Origin: Desulfosporosinus acidiphilus SJ4
GTDB taxonomy: Bacteria > Bacillota > Desulfitobacteriia > Desulfitobacteriales > Desulfitobacteriaceae
Reading direction: 5' to 3'
Length of the DNA stretch: 64,000 bases
Assembly (NCBI RefSeq): GCF_000255115.2
Contig: NC_018068.1
Location: forward strand, 806,001 to 870,000
Part shown: positions 1,774 to 34,713 of the stretch, piece after piece
Layout: each line of letters opens with the position of its first letter
Numbering within the stretch: the stretch's first letter is position 1
Program-made: the position numbers and the translations under genes
Notes under the pieces: generated by a model
The model's input: only the letters and a program-made list of their open reading frames with translations
Databases searched by the model: none
What the model was told of the DNA's origin: nothing

Positions 1774-2230
1774 AGGATTAGTGCGTCCGATGCTCTTGGA
1801 GGATCTGGAAGCCATTATGGAAATTGAACATGCCTCCTTTACAACGCCTTGGTCCTTGCAGGCTTTTGCAGCGGAACTTAAAGACAACGAATATGCCCAG
1901 TATCGTTGTTTGGAGTTGAATGGGCGAGTGATAGGGTATATGGGTCTATGGTTTATTCTTGATGAGGGACATATTACCAACATTGCTATTTCCCCTGACT
2001 ATCGCGGCCAGCGATGGGGAGAATTTTTAATGCGCTCTATTATGAAAGAGATGGCGGAGCTAGGCATGGAACGGATGACGCTGGAAGTACGCGTCTCTAA
2101 TTACCCGGCCCAAGAATTATATAAGCGGATGGGTTTCGCCGCAGCAGGGGTCCGCAAAGGATATTATGCCGATACCGGCGAAGATGCCCTGATCATGTGG
2201 GCGGAATTGGGAAGGGAGGAAGACATATGA
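1766..2230 (+). CDS. rimI: Ribosomal protein alanine N-acetyltransferase RimI
   Basis: 154 residues of a GNAT fold. The N-terminal half has the IEHASFTTPWS motif characteristic of RimI, the acetyl-CoA loop reads ISPDYRGQRWGEFLM (a Q/R-x-x-G-x-G/A type loop in which the usual second glycine is tryptophan), and EVRVSNYPAQELYKRMGF forms the C-terminal signature. RimI acetylates the N-terminal alanine of ribosomal protein S18. It commonly sits between tsaB and tsaD in Firmicutes, as here, overlapping both neighbours by a few bases. Confidence 0.92.
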   Translation: MNKGLVRPMLLEDLEAIMEIEHASFTTPWSLQAFAAELKDNEYAQYRCLELNGRVIGYMGLWFILDEGHITNIAISPDYRGQRWGEFLMRSIMKEMAELGMERMTLEVRVSNYPAQELYKRMGFAAAGVRKGYYADTGEDALIMWAELGREEDI

Positions 2231-3261
2231 CGGTGAGCCAGAAGAAGCAGGTTACTATTTTAGGCATTGAAACGAGCTGTGATGAAACCTCTGCCGCTGT
2301 TTTAGTTGATGGAGTCGATCTGCGCAGCCATATTATTTCTTCCCAAATTAAGACACATCAGAAGTATGGAGGTGTGGTGCCGGAAATCGCCTCCCGGGAA
2401 CATAGCCTTCACATCCAACCGGTTGTAGAGCAGACTTTAGCTGAGGCCGGCGTTGGTTTTACAGATCTTACGGCAATTGCCGTAACCTATGGCCCCGGAC
2501 TCGTTGGTTCTCTTTTAGTAGGGGTTTCCGGTGCCAAGGCTATGGCTTATGCCGCCGGAATACCCTTGCTGGGGATAAACCACTTAGAAGGGCATATCTA
2601 CGCAAACTTTCTTGAACACCACGACATCAAATTTCCTCTGGCAGCCCTTTTAGTATCAGGAGGGCATACCCATCTAATTTTATTTGAAGATCATGGCAAG
2701 TACCGTGTCTTAGGGTATACTCGGGACGATGCTGCAGGTGAGGCCCTGGATAAAGTGGCCCGAGCTTTAGGTTTAGGCTATCCGGGAGGGCCGCAGATCC
2801 AGAATACTTCTCGGGGCGGCAATGAACAAGCTTTTAAGTTTCCGCGAGCAATGTTGGAACCCGGAAGTTTAGATTTTAGTTTTAGCGGAATGAAATCAGC
2901 CGTTTTAAATACCTTGAATTCTGCCCGGATGAAGGGGGAAACTTTGAATGTCCCTGATTTGGCTGCATCGTTTCAGCAAGCGGTGGTAGATGTTTTAGTT
3001 CACAAGGCCTTAACAGCTCTTGAACAGACAGGAGTAAAAACGCTGCTCTTAGCAGGCGGCGTGGCAGCCAATCGATTATTAAGGGAAACACTTGACTATG
3101 AATTATCGCAACGGAAGGTGCGGCTGGTATATCCCTCGCCAATTTTATGCACCGACAATGGAGCAATGATTGCTACGGCGGGTTATTACCACTTTTTAGA
3201 GGGAGATTTTGCTCCTTGGACGCTGAATGCAGTTCCGGGATTAAATTTAAAGTCAATATAG
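2227..3261 (+). CDS. tsaD: tRNA N6-adenosine threonylcarbamoyltransferase TsaD
   Basis: 344 residues from the ATG at 2227, which overlaps the rimI stop; the open frame upstream of it is within rimI. TsaD (Gcp/YgjD) is the catalytic subunit of t6A synthesis. Visible signatures are GIETSCDETSAAV at the N-terminus, the iron-binding HLEGH motif in GINHLEGHIYANF, ALLVSGGHTHL, and the C-terminal LAGGVAANRLLRE and CTDNGAMIA segments. It ends the operon; a strong hairpin terminator follows about 35 bases downstream. Confidence 0.96.
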   Translation: MTVSQKKQVTILGIETSCDETSAAVLVDGVDLRSHIISSQIKTHQKYGGVVPEIASREHSLHIQPVVEQTLAEAGVGFTDLTAIAVTYGPGLVGSLLVGVSGAKAMAYAAGIPLLGINHLEGHIYANFLEHHDIKFPLAALLVSGGHTHLILFEDHGKYRVLGYTRDDAAGEALDKVARALGLGYPGGPQIQNTSRGGNEQAFKFPRAMLEPGSLDFSFSGMKSAVLNTLNSARMKGETLNVPDLAASFQQAVVDVLVHKALTALEQTGVKTLLLAGGVAANRLLRETLDYELSQRKVRLVYPSPILCTDNGAMIATAGYYHFLEGDFAPWTLNAVPGLNLKSI

Positions 3262-3294
3262 TCATTATTGTGGTTTAAATGAAAATGAATTCGA

Positions 3295-3345
3295 CGAAAC
3301 AAAGCGAGGAAGTTAGGTTTTCTCGCTTTGTTTCGTATTCTTTTA
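3295..3345 (+). terminator. Rho-independent terminator after tsaD
   Basis: A perfect 14-bp inverted repeat (3295-3308 with 3322-3335) with a 13-base loop, followed by a T-rich stretch (tattctttt). It ends the tsaE-tsaD operon. Confidence 0.85.
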
Positions 3346-3374: not shown

Positions 3375-3550
3375 TGTGGATAAGGATAATTTGTGGATAA
3401 TGTGTATAAGTCTGTAGATAACTATAGACAGCGGTTTCAGGGATTTGTGGTTAGCGTGGACAATTCGGATAAAGTTACCCACAGGCCCTGTGGATAGTGT
3501 TGATAACTTTTCCTACAAGGCGGTAAAGCTGACTAGTAAGCTGTGGATAA
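3375..3550. promoter_or_regulatory. Cluster of DnaA boxes
   Basis: Three exact 9-mer DnaA boxes (TGTGGATAA, the complement of TTATCCACA) lie at 3375-3383, 3392-3400 and 3542-3550. Five more 9-mers differ by one base: 3401-3409, 3413-3421, 3475-3483 (opposite strand), 3489-3497 and 3498-3506. Eight boxes in 176 bases is far above chance. No dnaA, dnaN or rpmH lies nearby, so this is either an extra-oriC DnaA-binding cluster (titration or regulatory) or, less likely, a replication origin. Confidence 0.75.
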
Positions 3551-3913
3551 GGATGTGTGTCAATTAAGTTTAAATCTTTAGCAAAACATGACTAAGCAAA
3601 TTGAAAAAATGAAAATAAGTTCGAAACAATGAAAAGAATTTCTAACTAAAGAAAAACATAAAGGTTTAGTTTAGCTAAAAGTTTTAATTCTGTCCTTGTT
3701 TCGCAAGATTATCTGATTAATGTAGAAATTCATCGTTTTTTTAAAAAGTCATGTAGTATTGAGTCATAGTTATTTGATTAAATATTTCGGTACAAAAGAT
3801 GTTGAAAAATTCTAACTATACATAATAAAAATTATAATCGGAAGAAGGAGTTTGCCGCTGTTGAGCGAATATTTCTAATAAACATGTGATTTTACCGAAA
3901 GGCAGTACTAGAG
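3551..3913. other. AT-rich intergenic stretch
   Basis: No gene is visible. The stretch is strongly AT-rich with many A-tracts and TTAG/CTAA-like steps, lying directly beside the DnaA boxes and before the 5-formyl-THF cyclo-ligase gene. It would suit easily melted DNA, but I see no defined unwinding element. Confidence 0.5.
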
Positions 3914-4507
3914 ATGAGTGAGGAGAAGTTATTACAAAAAGGTATCAGCCGCAAATGCTGTTTAGCTCAGCGCGCAGGTATGGGGGAGAAAGAGAGACAT
4001 CACAAGAGCCGGCTTATTCAGGAGAAGATTTTAGCTTTGCCTGAGTATAAGCGAGCTCAAGCCGTTATGCTCTTTCTTAACTTTCGCGATGAAGTAGAGA
4101 CAACGGATTTAGCTGAAATTACCTTGGCAATGCCGAAACGACTTATCTTGCCACGATGTGCGCCTCGAGGGACGCTTCTGCCAATTGAAGTACGCAATCT
4201 TAGAATGGATCTTGAACCAGGGCGCTGGGGAATACGAGAGCCTAAATTGAACCTTGACGAAATAGAACCTTCTGAGATTGATTTAATCCTTGTGCCTGGT
4301 GCCGGTTTCGATCTCCGGGGAAATCGTGTGGGATATGGAGGGGGCTTCTATGATCGCTTTTTCGAGCGGCTTAAGCCGACTGTGCCCAGGATTGCCATAG
4401 CGTTTGAATGTCAAGTCGTTGATGAAGTCCCTGTGGCTGAGCATGATGTTCAAATGACCATGTTAATTACTGAAAAAAATGTTTATCATTTTGAATCTAG
4501 GGAGTAA
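3914..4507 (+). CDS. 5-formyltetrahydrofolate cyclo-ligase
   Basis: 197 residues. The C-terminal signature GYGGGFYDRFF (about residues 140-150), preceded by LILVPGAGFDLRGNRVG, is that of 5-formyl-THF cyclo-ligase (MTHFS/YgfA family), which converts 5-formyl-THF to 5,10-methenyl-THF using ATP. The ATG at 3914 has only a weak ribosome binding site. Fifteen bases separate it from the formate dehydrogenase subunits, which is consistent with a shared link between formate and one-carbon folate metabolism, though co-transcription is inferred only from spacing. Confidence 0.9.
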   Translation: MSEEKLLQKGISRKCCLAQRAGMGEKERHHKSRLIQEKILALPEYKRAQAVMLFLNFRDEVETTDLAEITLAMPKRLILPRCAPRGTLLPIEVRNLRMDLEPGRWGIREPKLNLDEIEPSEIDLILVPGAGFDLRGNRVGYGGGFYDRFFERLKPTVPRIAIAFECQVVDEVPVAEHDVQMTMLITEKNVYHFESRE

Positions 4508-6859: not shown

Positions 6860-9538
6860 TTGGAGTGGCTTACAATTACTATTGACGGCCGTGAAGTCAG
6901 TGTTCCCAAGGGGACGACTGTGCTTGAAGCCTGTCGCATGAATAATATTCCGATTCCAACTTTGTGTCATGATCCGGAGCTTACCCCTGCCGGGGCTTGC
7001 CGTTTATGTGTGGTTCAAATTGAAGGAATGAGAAATCTTCCTCCTTCTTGTGTCACCCAAGCGACCCAGGGAATGAAAATCGAGACTCAAAATGCCAAAG
7101 TCCGGGCAGCCCGCAAAATGATTTTAGAGCTATTGGTTGCTAATCATCCCTTAGACTGTATGACATGCGAAAAAATGGGAAATTGTTCGTTAGCTGAATT
7201 TGCTTACGAGTATGGAGTAAAAGGTGAGGTATTCGAAGGGGAAAAGCGTAGTCTCCCTGTGGATGATGCAAATCCTTTTATTATAAGAGATCCGAATAAA
7301 TGTATCTTATGCGGAAAATGTATCAAGGCTTGTTCCGAAATCCAAGGGAAAAGCAGGTTGGATTTTTCCTTCCGTGGTTTTAATACTCAAGTGGGTCCTG
7401 AGTTTAATCTTCCTTTGCAGGAGTCTGAATGCGATTTCTGCGGTTCTTGTGTCTCAGTCTGCCCGGTGGGTGCACTGACCGAAAAACAAATGGTTGGGAA
7501 AGGTCGTCCCTGGGAAATTACAAAAGTTCAAACCACATGCCCCTTCTGTGGGGTGGGCTGCAACTTTGACCTAAATGTCAAAGACGGAAAGGTTATTGGG
7601 GTAACCTCGAACCCGCAGGCTCCTGTCAATGGCAAAGCCCTTTGCGTCAAAGGCCGTTTTGGGATGGACATGATTTATAGCTCCAGACGTGTAACAACAC
7701 CTTTGATTAGAAAGGACGGAGTCCTGGTTCCAGCGGATTGGGATGAAGCTTTAGATTTGGTTGCTTCGAAGTTCCGTGAAATTAAGGATACCTACGGACC
7801 TAATTCACTGGCAGCCTTGAGTTCAGCTCATTGTACCAATGAAGAAAATTATTTAATGCAAAAATTCATGCGCGCGGTGATCGGAACCAATAATGTTGAT
7901 CACTGCGCCAGGACCTGACACGCTCCCACTGTGGCCGGTCTGGCCACTTCATTCGGATCAGGTGCTATGACAAATTCAATCAATGAGATTCCAAATACTA
8001 AGTGTATGTTCGTAATTGGTTCAAATGCAACGGAGGCTCATCCGGTAATTGGAACCAAGATGAAGCAGGCATTGGCCAAGGGTGCAAAACTCATTGTTGC
8101 CGATCCTCGCTGTATTGATTTGGCAGAGTGCTCAGATATATGGCTGAGACTTCGCCCGGGAACTGATATCGCCCTGATTAACGGGATTATGAATATTATT
8201 ATCGCTAATGGCTGGGAAAATCGTGCCTTCATTGATACACGGACCGAAGGGTTTGAAAAGCTTAAAGAAACTGTTCAGAACTATACACCTGAATTTACCA
8301 GTCAGATTACCGGTGTGCCGGTAGAACAACTCGTTGAAGCTGCAAGAATGTATGCAACGGCTGAACGGGCGCAGATTTTCTATACGTTAGGGATTACAGA
8401 ACACTCTTGCGGTACAGATAATGTAATGAGTTTAGCAAACCTTGCTATGCTGACCGGAAATATAGGCAGGGAATCAACTGGGGTCAATCCGCTGCGCGGG
8501 CAAAATAACGTTCAAGGCGCCTGCGATATGGGAGCTCTGCCCAACGTATATCCGGGGTATCAGCAAGTCAGTAACCCGGAGGTTCGGGCTAAATTTGAAG
8601 CCGCTTGGGGAGTTCCCCTCGACCCGAATCCTGGTTTTATGATTCCGGATATGTTTGAGGCTGCAGTGAGCAAACAACTGCGTGCTCTTTATGTTATGGG
8701 TGAAGATCCTGTAATGACGGATGCGGATGCCAACCATGTACGCAAAGGTTTAAAAGCTCTGGATTTCCTTGTGGTGCAGGAAATTTTCTTATCGGAAACT
8801 GCTCTGCTGGCTGACGTTGTTTTGCCGGGGGCAAGTTACGCAGAAAAGACAGGAACCGTTACCAATACAGAGCGCAGGGTCCAAATGGTTAATCAGGCCA
8901 TTAAACCCTTGGGGAACGCCAAGACTGATGGGGAAATTATCTGTGAACTTGCCAATCGGATGGGTTATCCATTCCCCTATTCTTCCGCGGCAGAGGTTAT
9001 GGATGAAATTGCTCAGCTCACTCCTCAATTTGCCGGTATTTCTTATGCCCGACTGGGTACCCAAGGACTGCAATGGCCGGTTCCCAGTATGGAGCACCCT
9101 GGAACTAAGTTCTTGCATGAAGGAAAATTTAATAGGGGCAAAGGACTTTTCGTTCCCTGTGAAAATCAACCACCTAAAGAACAGCCTGACGCAGAATACC
9201 CATTATTGCTTAGTACGGGGCGGAAACTTTCCCTTTACAATGTGTTTACTCAAAGTTCAGAAGGGTTAGTTAAAAACTCTCCGGAAGAGTTGGCAGAGCT
9301 TAACCCTGCTGATGCCAAGCAACTGGGAATAAGTGACGGTGAAGTTGTCAAGGTGGCCTCTCGTCGGGGTGAGCTGAACACGAAGGTTAAGGTAACAGAA
9401 CGTGTACCTTTGGGTATGATATTTATGACACTTCATTATACGGAGTCGCCGACCAACGTTCTAACCAACGGAGCCTACGATAAAGTCACCAAGACGTATG
9501 AGTACAAGGTTTGCGGAGTAAAGGTTTCAAAACTTTAA
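6860..9538 (+). CDS. fdhA: Formate dehydrogenase catalytic subunit FdhA, selenocysteine-containing
   Basis: One gene of 892 residues starting at TTG 6860 (GAGAGGAG upstream). An in-frame TGA at 7916-7918 is read as selenocysteine (Sec353) in CARTUHAPTVAGLA; an ordinary gene call would split it in two. The order of domains is: [2Fe-2S] plant-ferredoxin-like (C36, C47, C50, C64), a His-liganded cluster (H96, C100, C103, C109), two [4Fe-4S] clusters (C148/151/154/158 and C191/194/197/201), then the molybdopterin oxidoreductase with its own [4Fe-4S] site (C227, C230, C234, C262). The Sec is the expected Mo or W ligand. The C-terminal molydopterin-dinucleotide-binding beta barrel begins near LLLSTGRKLSLYN. 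The NuoG-like N-terminus docks with the two preceding subunits, giving NAD(P)-linked formate oxidation or CO2 reduction. Confidence 0.96.
7916..7947 (+). promoter_or_regulatory. Selenocysteine codon and bSECIS hairpin in fdhA
   Basis: TGA 7916-7918 is followed 12 bases later by a perfect 6-bp stem (7931-7936 GTGGCC with 7942-7947 GGCCAC) closing the loop GGTCT. A GGUCU apical loop at this distance from UGA is the hallmark of bacterial SECIS elements such as that of E. coli fdhF, where SelB binds the loop. It lies inside the coding sequence, as bacterial SECIS elements do. Confidence 0.9.
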
Positions 9539-11541: not shown

Positions 11542-11713
11542 GTCAACCTCCTCATACCTTCTACCTCCTAGTTTACATTATTTTTAGAAAAACCAAAATC
11601 TTTTTTTAATGTCGAAATAATAGCGTTTTTATGGATATTGATAAAGGAATTTTGAAATCATATCTCGAATGAATACATAATAAATGGTTACAACGATACA
11701 AACTAATTAACAA

Positions 11714-11870
11714 TTGAATGCTCCGAAGCTGGTTTTCCTAAGGCAAGGCTATGGCGACCAGACAAGTGTCTTAGACACTCGGGTATTGCGGGAAACTGTA
11801 ATATCTCCTATTGGAAAGGAGTCTGTTGAACAGGAGGAAGTAATCCCCCGGTTATTTACAGACCGTGTAT
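11714..11870 (+). ncRNA. Structured leader of moaA, candidate Mo/W-cofactor-sensing RNA
   Basis: Between fdhD and moaA there is no gene, but this stretch holds several nested pairings: AGTGTC/GACACT (from 11765), GTCTGT (11821-11826) with ACAGAC (11858-11863), and a CTCC...GGAG hairpin near 11805-11821. It is followed immediately by a strong terminator. A structured region plus terminator ahead of moaA is the layout of a Moco riboswitch (Rfam MOCO_RNA_motif). I could not fit the published consensus from memory, so the assignment is tentative. Confidence 0.35.
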
Positions 11871-27157: not shown

Positions 27158-32073
<4,916 letters not shown>

Positions 32074-32196
32074 AATTGAACTACGATAGGAACGTGGCTC
32101 AGTGTTTCCGAAGAAGAGAAGACGAAACTAGAAAGAAGACTCTATGTGGTTTTGAGAGAGCAGGGTTCTGTAAAAGAAAACTGAAAATCTCAGAGA

Positions 32197-32313
32197 TCTG
32201 GTGATCATGCCGGAGGGGTTCCACCCGTTCCCATACCGAACACGGAAGTTAAGACCTCCAGGGCCGAGCATACTTGGGGCATAGCCCCTGGGAAATTAGG
32301 TCATCGCCAGGTA
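32197..32313 (+). rRNA. rrf: 5S ribosomal RNA
   Basis: About 117 bases: CTGGTGATCATGCCGGAGGGG at the 5' end pairs with ATCGCCAG at the 3' end; CCGAACACGGAAGTTAAGACC is conserved loop sequence. Confidence 0.96.
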
Positions 32314-34434: not shown

Positions 34435-34623
34435 ATGACTTTTATCGTGTGCCCGAGTGTATAATATAACAGTGCCAATATCACCTTTTATGTGCGAATG
34501 GCACGATAAATTTGTGACTTTTGCTACTAGCTAAGAACTTTTAACTGGACTATTATAATATACATTAGGGCGAAAGAACTAACAGAATAGAACGATCGGC
34601 CTAAATTAATAACAGTAACAATA

Positions 34624-34713
34624 ATAGCAAGCTTGGACGAAAGTCAAGGACGCAAAACTATGGGCCTTCCGGTATAACTGATGACAGCCAGGCCACCGAA
34701 TCAAATTTGCTAT
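34624..34713 (+). ncRNA. c-di-GMP-I (GEMM) riboswitch
   Basis: The core GGACGAAAGTC (GNRA-capped stem), GGACGCAAA, and the P3 pairing GGGCCT...AGCCAGGCC followed by ACCGA match the GEMM-I consensus closely. The closing P1 stem is ATAGCAA (34624-34630) with TTGCTAT (34707-34713). A weak hairpin TCATA-cgt-TATGA plus TTTTTT follows at about 34715-34738. No clear target gene starts nearby; the next long gene, a sensor kinase, is 520 bases away. Confidence 0.87.

What the first reader, a model, noticed from the sequence alone, without database searches (positions are those of the whole stretch)
3375..3550. Eight DnaA boxes in 176 bases, away from dnaA
Three exact TTATCCACA-type boxes and five one-mismatch boxes lie in a non-coding region next to AT-rich DNA. 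Known extra-oriC clusters in Bacillus and datA/DARS in E. coli control DnaA availability, so this may be such a site. An origin is less likely because dnaA, dnaN and rpmH are absent nearby, but the AT-rich flank does not rule it out.
Basis: partly seen in the sequence, partly recalled or inferred. Interest (0 to 1): 0.6.

Follow-up and report, generated by a model that had tools for sequence, protein, structure and literature searches.

The report
Ancient DnaA-box cluster beside tsaD
A short non-coding stretch that should bind the protein which starts chromosome copying sits just after the gene tsaD and keeps much the same layout in many families of one bacterial phylum, so it is probably an old control site for the timing of replication.

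Summary
The eight boxes are real and far beyond chance. They are not an origin: dnaA and its boxes lie 0.8 Mb away and GC skew does not change sign here. The cluster is the positional counterpart of the Bacillus subtilis gcp-ydiF DnaA-binding region (gcp = tsaD), among the strongest DnaA sites in vitro (PMC4447404). All 29 genomes of the genus have it, with near-fixed spacing. A box cluster lies 3' of tsaD in 56 of 89 families examined in the phylum; spacings of 9, 12 and 21 bp recur above a jitter null. The core is two abutting strong boxes plus a conserved weak box. This triad occurs in 134 of 299 genomes, reversed control 0. Of 114 triads in genomes with a known tsaD place, 46 lie 3' of tsaD, 0.1 expected; 47 of the other 68 lie beside comF/hpf. 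Best reading: an ordered sink for (ATP-)DnaA that restrains initiation. Binding and function here are inferred; Bacillus lacks the triad. DARS membership fails on box II-III spacing. The kind is known; I found no print of this architecture or its conservation.

The parts
2197..3261 (+). tsaD (gcp): the cluster lies 3' of it in this genome and in many families
   Evidence: TIGR03723 at 441.5 bits, cut-off 296.1; ORF
3294..3336 (+). terminator-like hairpin between tsaD and the cluster
   Evidence: 20-pair stem, 3-base loop, T-rich tail; 2 sites found in the region against 0.9 in shuffles
3375..3383 (-). DnaA box 1, exact
   Evidence: TTATNCACA in 27 of 29 genomes of the genus
3392..3400 (-). DnaA box 2, exact; first of the triad
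   Evidence: 20 of 29
3401..3409 (-). DnaA box 3 (TTATACACA, fits TTATNCACA); abuts box 2; second of the triad
   Evidence: 28 of 29
3413..3421 (-). DnaA box 4, conserved weak box TTATCTACA; third of the triad, 12 bp after box 3 and 21 bp after box 2
   Evidence: 0 of 29 match TTATNCACA, yet 28 of 29 are TTATCTACA; position-6 loss in 18 of 24 family triads
3475..3483 (+). DnaA box 5, the only box on the + strand; faces box 6 across 5 bp
   Evidence: 18 of 29 match TTATNCACA
3489..3497 (-). DnaA box 6
   Evidence: 23 of 29
3498..3506 (-). DnaA box 7, abuts box 6
   Evidence: 25 of 29
3542..3550 (-). DnaA box 8, 44 bp after box 7 (42-44 bp in the congeners but one)
   Evidence: 11 of 29 exact; one genome (G024) has no box at 42-45 bp
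3551..3913 (.). AT-rich flank (27% GC) before the next gene; no role shown
3914..4507 (+). 5-formyltetrahydrofolate cyclo-ligase gene, neighbour in this genus; other families have other neighbours
   Evidence: TIGR02727 at 159.6 bits, cut-off 84.9; neighbours vary

Best explanation
It is an extra-oriC DnaA-box cluster, the counterpart of the gcp-ydiF cluster of Bacillus, that binds DnaA cooperatively in an ordered array and so keeps initiator away from oriC. SHOWN by sequence: the eight boxes, their near-fixed spacing in the genus, the location 3' of tsaD in many families, the strong-strong-weak triad, and independence of the downstream gene. SHOWN by others for B. subtilis only: strong DnaA binding there, with preference for ATP-DnaA, and early initiation when six extra-oriC clusters are removed together. 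INFERRED: DnaA docks on the abutting strong boxes (9 bp apart) and spreads head to tail onto the weak box 12 bp on, which would fill only with ATP-DnaA; 21 bp and 42-43 bp are near two and four helical turns, so those boxes share a face of the DNA; when the fork passes, the site doubles, its capacity doubles, and re-initiation is delayed.
For: Box cluster beyond chance. 29 of 29 genomes of the genus carry it; boxes 97.4% against spacers 68.8% mean majority base. 56 of 89 families have a cluster 3' of tsaD. '--' spacing of 9 bp in 46, 21 bp in 39, 12 bp in 38 and 43 bp in 16 of 56 families, against jitter means of 14.0, 6.6, 12.2 and 5.6; 0 of 500 jitters reach any of these four. The triad's third box has lost position 6 in 18 of 24 triads, against 20 of 271 other boxes. 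Triad in 134 of 299 genomes, reversed control 0; 46 of 114 lie 3' of tsaD, all 46 in one orientation, 0.1 expected. B. spizizenii 3' of tsaD shares the 9- and 43-bp spacings. In B. subtilis the region 'downstream of gcp; downstream of ydiF' has 10 sites, Kd 0.15 uM (ATP) and 0.33 uM (ADP), 16-fold more DNA bound with ATP-DnaA at 55 nM (PMC4447404). Removing six clusters gives early initiation, partly relieved by one cluster put back (PMC5295017; PMC13220808). gcp/ydiF is not among the eight gene sets listed as directly regulated by DnaA (PMC8203912).
Against: No binding or phenotype is measured in this organism. A passive sink does not obviously need spacing this strict. Bacillus, where the data come from, lacks the triad, so the architecture is not uniform. 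33 of 89 families have no cluster within 1.5 kb 3' of tsaD. The same review that reports the deletion also says that the B. subtilis clusters play no significant role in initiation (PMC5295017), and the effect was strong only with all six removed. tsaD lies no nearer oriC in families with the cluster than in those without (medians 0.39 and 0.29 of the replichore, p 0.45), so placement gives no support.
Confidence: 0.62

Rival explanations
1. An active switch like datA: the ordered ATP-DnaA array on the direct boxes makes DnaA hydrolyse its ATP, so the site inactivates rather than merely holds DnaA.
For: Direct, closely packed boxes with fixed spacing and a conserved weak box suit a defined oligomer; the B. 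subtilis counterpart prefers ATP-DnaA (PMC4447404); whether Bacillota have regulators of the DnaA nucleotide state is said to be unknown (PMC13220808).
Against: No hydrolysis data; datA needs IHF (PMC5742627) and B. subtilis is said to lack IHF; datA's layout was not compared here.
Confidence: 0.17
2. A DARS-like site that reloads ADP-DnaA with ATP through the facing pair of boxes 5 and 6.
For: Boxes 5 and 6 face each other across 5 bp (14 bp start to start), as do boxes I and II of both E. coli DARS1 and DARS2; the third box points with box II in both; the pair is at 14 bp in 27 and 15 bp in 2 of 29 congeners.
Against: Box II-III spacing is 9 bp here and 12 bp in both DARS. A facing pair at 14 bp (boxes with at most one mismatch) is seen in only 2 of 56 families and not in the Bacillus relatives read. 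DARS prefers ADP-DnaA (PMC5742627), the B. subtilis counterpart ATP-DnaA.
Confidence: 0.07
3. A transcription control site for tsaD or the downstream gene.
For: DnaA controls transcription at several B. subtilis clusters (PMC8203912); the cluster precedes a gene on the same strand here.
Against: It lies after a terminator-like hairpin; only one weak promoter-like match on the + strand, no more than in shuffles; downstream genes differ between families and 8 of 56 next ORFs point the other way; gcp/ydiF is not listed as DnaA-regulated.
Confidence: 0.06
4. A second or alternative replication origin.
For: Box cluster next to a 27% GC flank.
Against: dnaA with boxes on either side is at C3:1-2300; skew is positive on both sides of the cluster; there are other such clusters in the same genome.
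Confidence: 0.01

Closest known systems
Bacillus subtilis gcp-ydiF DnaA-binding region, one of the extra-oriC DnaA-box clusters
   Same: Directly 3' of tsaD (gcp); about ten boxes; shares the 9-bp abutting pair followed by a box 43 bp on (B. spizizenii as stand-in); not in the list of genes regulated by DnaA.
   Different: Bacillus lacks the 9+12 triad with weak third box and the facing pair; its neighbour is ydiF on the opposite strand, here 5-FCL on the same strand.
E. coli DARS1/DARS2 core
   Same: Box I opposite to II and III; facing pair I-II with a 5-bp gap.
   Different: Box II-III spacing 9 against 12 bp; five further boxes; no IHF/Fis sites sought; the Bacillus counterpart prefers ATP-DnaA.
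E. coli datA
   Same: Non-coding box cluster away from oriC that lowers initiation.
   Different: datA works with an IHF site; layouts not compared here.
Bacterial oriC
   Same: Box cluster beside AT-rich DNA.
   Different: No dnaA, no skew switch; in this genome oriC has other spacings.

Membership tests
Bacillus-type extra-oriC DnaA-box cluster (gcp-ydiF) | Dense DnaA boxes in a non-coding region away from dnaA | tested here: met
Bacillus-type extra-oriC DnaA-box cluster (gcp-ydiF) | Located 3' of tsaD/gcp | tested here: met
   window and 56 of 89 families; Bacillus relatives
Bacillus-type extra-oriC DnaA-box cluster (gcp-ydiF) | Shared box spacing with Bacillus | tested here: inconclusive
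   9 and 43-44 bp shared with B. spizizenii, B. inaquosorum, B. siamensis; triad and facing pair not shared
Bacillus-type extra-oriC DnaA-box cluster (gcp-ydiF) | Bound by DnaA | not testable with these tools
   shown for B. subtilis only (PMC4447404, passages)
Bacillus-type extra-oriC DnaA-box cluster (gcp-ydiF) | Removal with the other clusters advances initiation | not testable with these tools
   B. subtilis only, through reviews; the original paper is not held
DARS | Box I opposite to boxes II and III, I-II 14 bp start to start | tested here: met
DARS | Box II-III spacing as in DARS1 and DARS2 (12 bp) | tested here: not met
   9 bp here, 12 bp in both E. coli sites
DARS | Promotes ADP release; prefers ADP-DnaA | not testable with these tools
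   the B. subtilis counterpart prefers ATP-DnaA
datA | IHF-dependent DnaA-ATP hydrolysis; IHF site between boxes | not tested
   no IHF-site scan and no comparison with datA was made
oriC | Next to dnaA/dnaN; GC-skew switch | tested here: not met
   dnaA 0.8 Mb away; skew positive on both sides

The most novel reading that the evidence does not exclude
Two loci, one 3' of tsaD and one beside comF/hpf, usually on opposite arms of the chromosome, carry the same strong-strong-weak DnaA triad through much of the phylum and act as the nucleotide-state switch of DnaA (the part that datA and DARS play in E. coli), not as passive sponges.
Probability: 0.18. Interest if true: 0.92.

Novelty: new variant of a known kind. 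Interest (0 to 1): 0.64.

Why it matters
Extra-oriC DnaA clusters in Bacillota are known from B. subtilis and are treated mainly as titration sites of uncertain weight. If a box array has kept its spacing, its weak box and its place beside tsaD across families whose TsaD proteins share only about half their residues, then it is an old, selected part of replication control and its geometry can be tested directly. The shared triad at two loci gives a search pattern for such sites in genomes without any DnaA binding data, and makes the open question of whether Bacillota control the DnaA nucleotide state testable in B. subtilis and in clostridia.

Tried and rejected
Origin: rejected on dnaA position, skew and the other clusters. 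Chance: rejected. DARS as a family: the I-II geometry looked striking, but III spacing differs and the facing pair is seen in 2 of 56 families. Special placement relative to oriC: not supported. Transcription control: see rivals. tsaD itself as the reason: in the seven congeners without a cluster within 700 bp of tsaD, it is 2.0-3.9 kb downstream in three and on another contig in four; in three of the latter four whose neighbours I read, it still lies beside the 5-FCL gene, so other DNA has come in between. E. coli has no box within 1.5 kb 3' of tsaD; no other phylum was tried.

Limits of the tallies; one representative for each of 89 of the 121 families in a 299-genome sample; 62 families were taken from the listed, more TsaD-similar rows and 27 from 30 genomes that I chose; 32 families were not looked at, and the choice of representative matters (f39: L100 has it, L101 not; f30: L163 scores 4, L131 and L164 score 1). 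One search was a fit with limited freedom (the first gaps were fixed), so its spacing agreement is partly by construction; in G015 the first gap is really 16 bp and in G024 box 8 is displaced. The triad pattern was designed from families seen before, and its match list was cut; one search used the 114 listed matches in 79 genomes whose tsaD place was listed, and one match that qualified (G095, not at tsaD) was left out by oversight. All 68 matches not at tsaD were then read: 47 beside comF and/or hpf, 7 beside an amino-acid-binding-protein-like or a flagellar-chaperone-like gene only, 1 at dnaA/dnaN, 13 beside none of these; G095 is also none. Some of these stretches end at contig ends.

Literature: ten searches found no paper on a phylum-wide tsaD cluster or a comF/hpf DnaA cluster. 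The library holds open-licence papers only; the two main B. subtilis papers (Okumura 2012, Ishikawa 2007) are not held and may say more. I saw passages of PMC4447404, PMC4585315, PMC13220808, PMC5742627 (and one section), PMC8682772, PMC4245941, PMC5295017, PMC12371093, PMC7561715, PMC8203912 and PMC5749712; none was read whole.

Full report
WHAT IS THERE. The window is C3:806001-870000 of a 4.93-Mb chromosome. Between tsaD (ends 3261) and a 5-formyltetrahydrofolate cyclo-ligase gene (from 3914) lie eight DnaA boxes in 176 bases: three exact and five with one mismatch, seven on the minus strand and one on the plus strand. About 0.05 are expected. Start-to-start spacing is 17, 9, 12, 62, 14, 9 and 44. 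A terminator-like hairpin (3294-3336) ends the tsaD side, and a 27% GC stretch follows. A caution: exact boxes across this chromosome are strand-biased anyway (18 of 20 minus on the right arm outside oriC), so seven of eight on minus is less telling than it looks.

NOT AN ORIGIN. dnaA is at C3:544-1938, with boxes before it and between it and dnaN. GC skew is positive on both sides of the cluster.

CONSERVATION IN THE GENUS. All 29 genomes of the genus in the search match the cluster. In an unconstrained scan 20 of 27 congeners with a tsaD locus have it within 700 bp of tsaD; in the other seven it is 2.0-3.9 kb away (three) or on another contig (four), and in the three of those four whose surroundings I read it still lies beside the cyclo-ligase gene. 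A fit to the layout (first gaps fixed, later ones allowed a few bases) gives 62 or 63 bp between boxes 4 and 5 (24 and 5 of 29), 14 or 15 bp between 5 and 6 (27 and 2), and 42-44 bp between 7 and 8 (28; the 29th fits badly). One genome has 16 bp, not 17, in the first gap. Boxes average 97.4% majority base, spacers 68.8%. Box 4 is never TTATNCACA yet is TTATCTACA in 28 of 29 (TTGTCTACA in one): a weak box kept weak.

CONSERVATION IN THE PHYLUM. The same search by tsaD in 299 genomes of the phylum found it in 294. That the phylum includes Bacillus is inferred: the box positions of one sample genome (L204) equal those of B. siamensis (L317). For one representative of each of 89 families I scored boxes within 1.5 kb 3' of tsaD against 100 dinucleotide shuffles: 56 have a cluster, 33 do not. 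Upstream and inside tsaD the score was 3 or less in every locus, against 4-16 in the clusters. Among the 56, pairs on the strand opposite tsaD at 9, 21, 12 and 43 bp occur in 46, 39, 38 and 16 families, against 14.0, 6.6, 12.2 and 5.6 when boxes are jittered by up to 6 bp; 0 of 500 jitters reach any of these. Neighbouring values (10, 11, 20, 22) are at or below the null. Families f14, f36, f53 and f65 share with the window the run 17-9-12. Genes downstream vary between families and 8 of 56 next ORFs point the other way (gene kinds there are read by eye from the protein starts).

THE TRIAD. In 24 families three boxes lie at x, x+9 and x+21. The first two fit the consensus in 22 and 20 of 24; the third has lost the C at position 6 in 18 of 24 (TTATNAACA in 16, TTATCTACA in 2, the window's genus among them), against 20 of 271 other boxes on that strand. 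Searched as a pattern with two mismatches allowed, the triad occurs in 134 of 299 genomes and its reversed control in 0; in the window's genome its only match is this cluster. The pattern was made from families already seen, so the count is not independent of them, but its place in the genome is: of 114 listed matches in 79 genomes with a listed tsaD place, 46 lie within 2.5 kb 3' of tsaD, all 46 in one orientation, 0.1 expected. An earlier pattern for boxes 5-7 matched 19 of 299 genomes, control 0, and 10 of those 19 loci are at tsaD.

A SECOND LOCUS. Of the 68 triads not at tsaD, 47 lie beside comF and/or hpf, 7 beside only an amino-acid-binding-protein-like or flagellar-chaperone-like gene, 1 at dnaA/dnaN, 13 beside none of these. 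The window's own genome has a cluster 3' of a comF-like gene at 4822.5 kb (boxes + 15 - 9 - 42 -; the ComF model scores 92.7 bits, below its cut-off of 233.6), but it is not a triad match. tsaD and this second cluster lie on opposite arms in 11 of 11 complete genomes tallied and in a twelfth (G197) read later, seven families in all; in G106 an extra triad with none of these neighbours lies on the same arm as tsaD. A third cluster, at 537.9 kb, is matched in 28 of 29 genomes of the genus.

COMPARISON. B. subtilis DnaA binds the region downstream of gcp and ydiF in vitro: 10 sites, Kd 0.15 uM (ATP) and 0.33 uM (ADP), and 16-fold more DNA recovered with ATP-DnaA at 55 nM (PMC4447404, passages). 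Reviews report that removing six extra-oriC clusters gives early initiation, partly relieved by putting one back; one of them also says that these clusters play no significant role in initiation (PMC5295017; PMC13220808; passages). Counting the non-oriC rows among the eight strongest regions gives six, gcp/ydiF among them, so I infer that it is one of the six. DnaA's directly regulated gene sets as listed do not include gcp/ydiF (PMC8203912, passages). B. spizizenii, B. inaquosorum and B. siamensis share the 9- and 43-bp spacings but have neither triad nor facing pair. E. coli DARS1 and DARS2 both have the facing pair with a 5-bp gap and box III 12 bp on; here box III is 9 bp on.

MECHANISM, with likelihoods. 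That this is a genuine, selected DnaA-binding array: about 0.97. That it acts mainly as an ordered sink for (ATP-)DnaA: 0.62. That it changes the nucleotide state of DnaA as datA does: 0.17; as DARS does: 0.07. Transcription: 0.06. Origin: 0.01. The strict spacing and the kept weak box speak for a defined oligomer and are what a passive sponge explains least well.

AGAINST. No experiment in this organism; the best-studied relative lacks the triad; a third of families lack the cluster; tsaD is no nearer oriC with the cluster than without it; and the two key B. subtilis papers could not be read.

NOVELTY. The kind (extra-oriC DnaA cluster) and one relative (gcp-ydiF) are known. The phylum-wide layout, the weak-box triad and the comF/hpf locus were not found in ten searches of an open-licence library; that is not proof that they are unpublished.

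Noticed in passing
L011 (C3:4820500-4828500), boxes at 2003-2077: A second DnaA cluster 3' of a comF-like gene, + 15 - 9 - 42 -. A DNA search with it matched 27 of 29 genomes of the genus, some of them only at the tsaD cluster. In other families a DnaA triad lies beside comF/hpf in 47 of 68 triads not at tsaD.
   Followed up: partly
L009 (C3:536000-540000), boxes at 1816-2065: A third cluster between an argininosuccinate-lyase-like and a nicotinate-phosphoribosyltransferase-like gene (names by eye), matched in 28 of 29 genomes of the genus.
   Followed up: partly
window 6860-9538 (+): Formate-dehydrogenase-like gene read through one in-frame TGA (residue 353...DHCARTUHAPTVAG...), which looks like a selenocysteine codon; no SECIS or family search was made.
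   Followed up: no
window 11709-11839 (+): Molybdenum/tungsten cofactor riboswitch, RF01055 at 49.9 bits, cut-off 36.
   Followed up: no
window 34616-34700 (+): c-di-GMP-I riboswitch, RF01051 at 50.2 bits, cut-off 35.
   Followed up: no
window 27159-32312 (+): Complete 16S-23S-5S rRNA operon.
   Followed up: no
L380 (G215:C10:131900-136400): One genome carries a triad match at dnaA/dnaN itself, so the same layout can occur at an origin.
   Followed up: no
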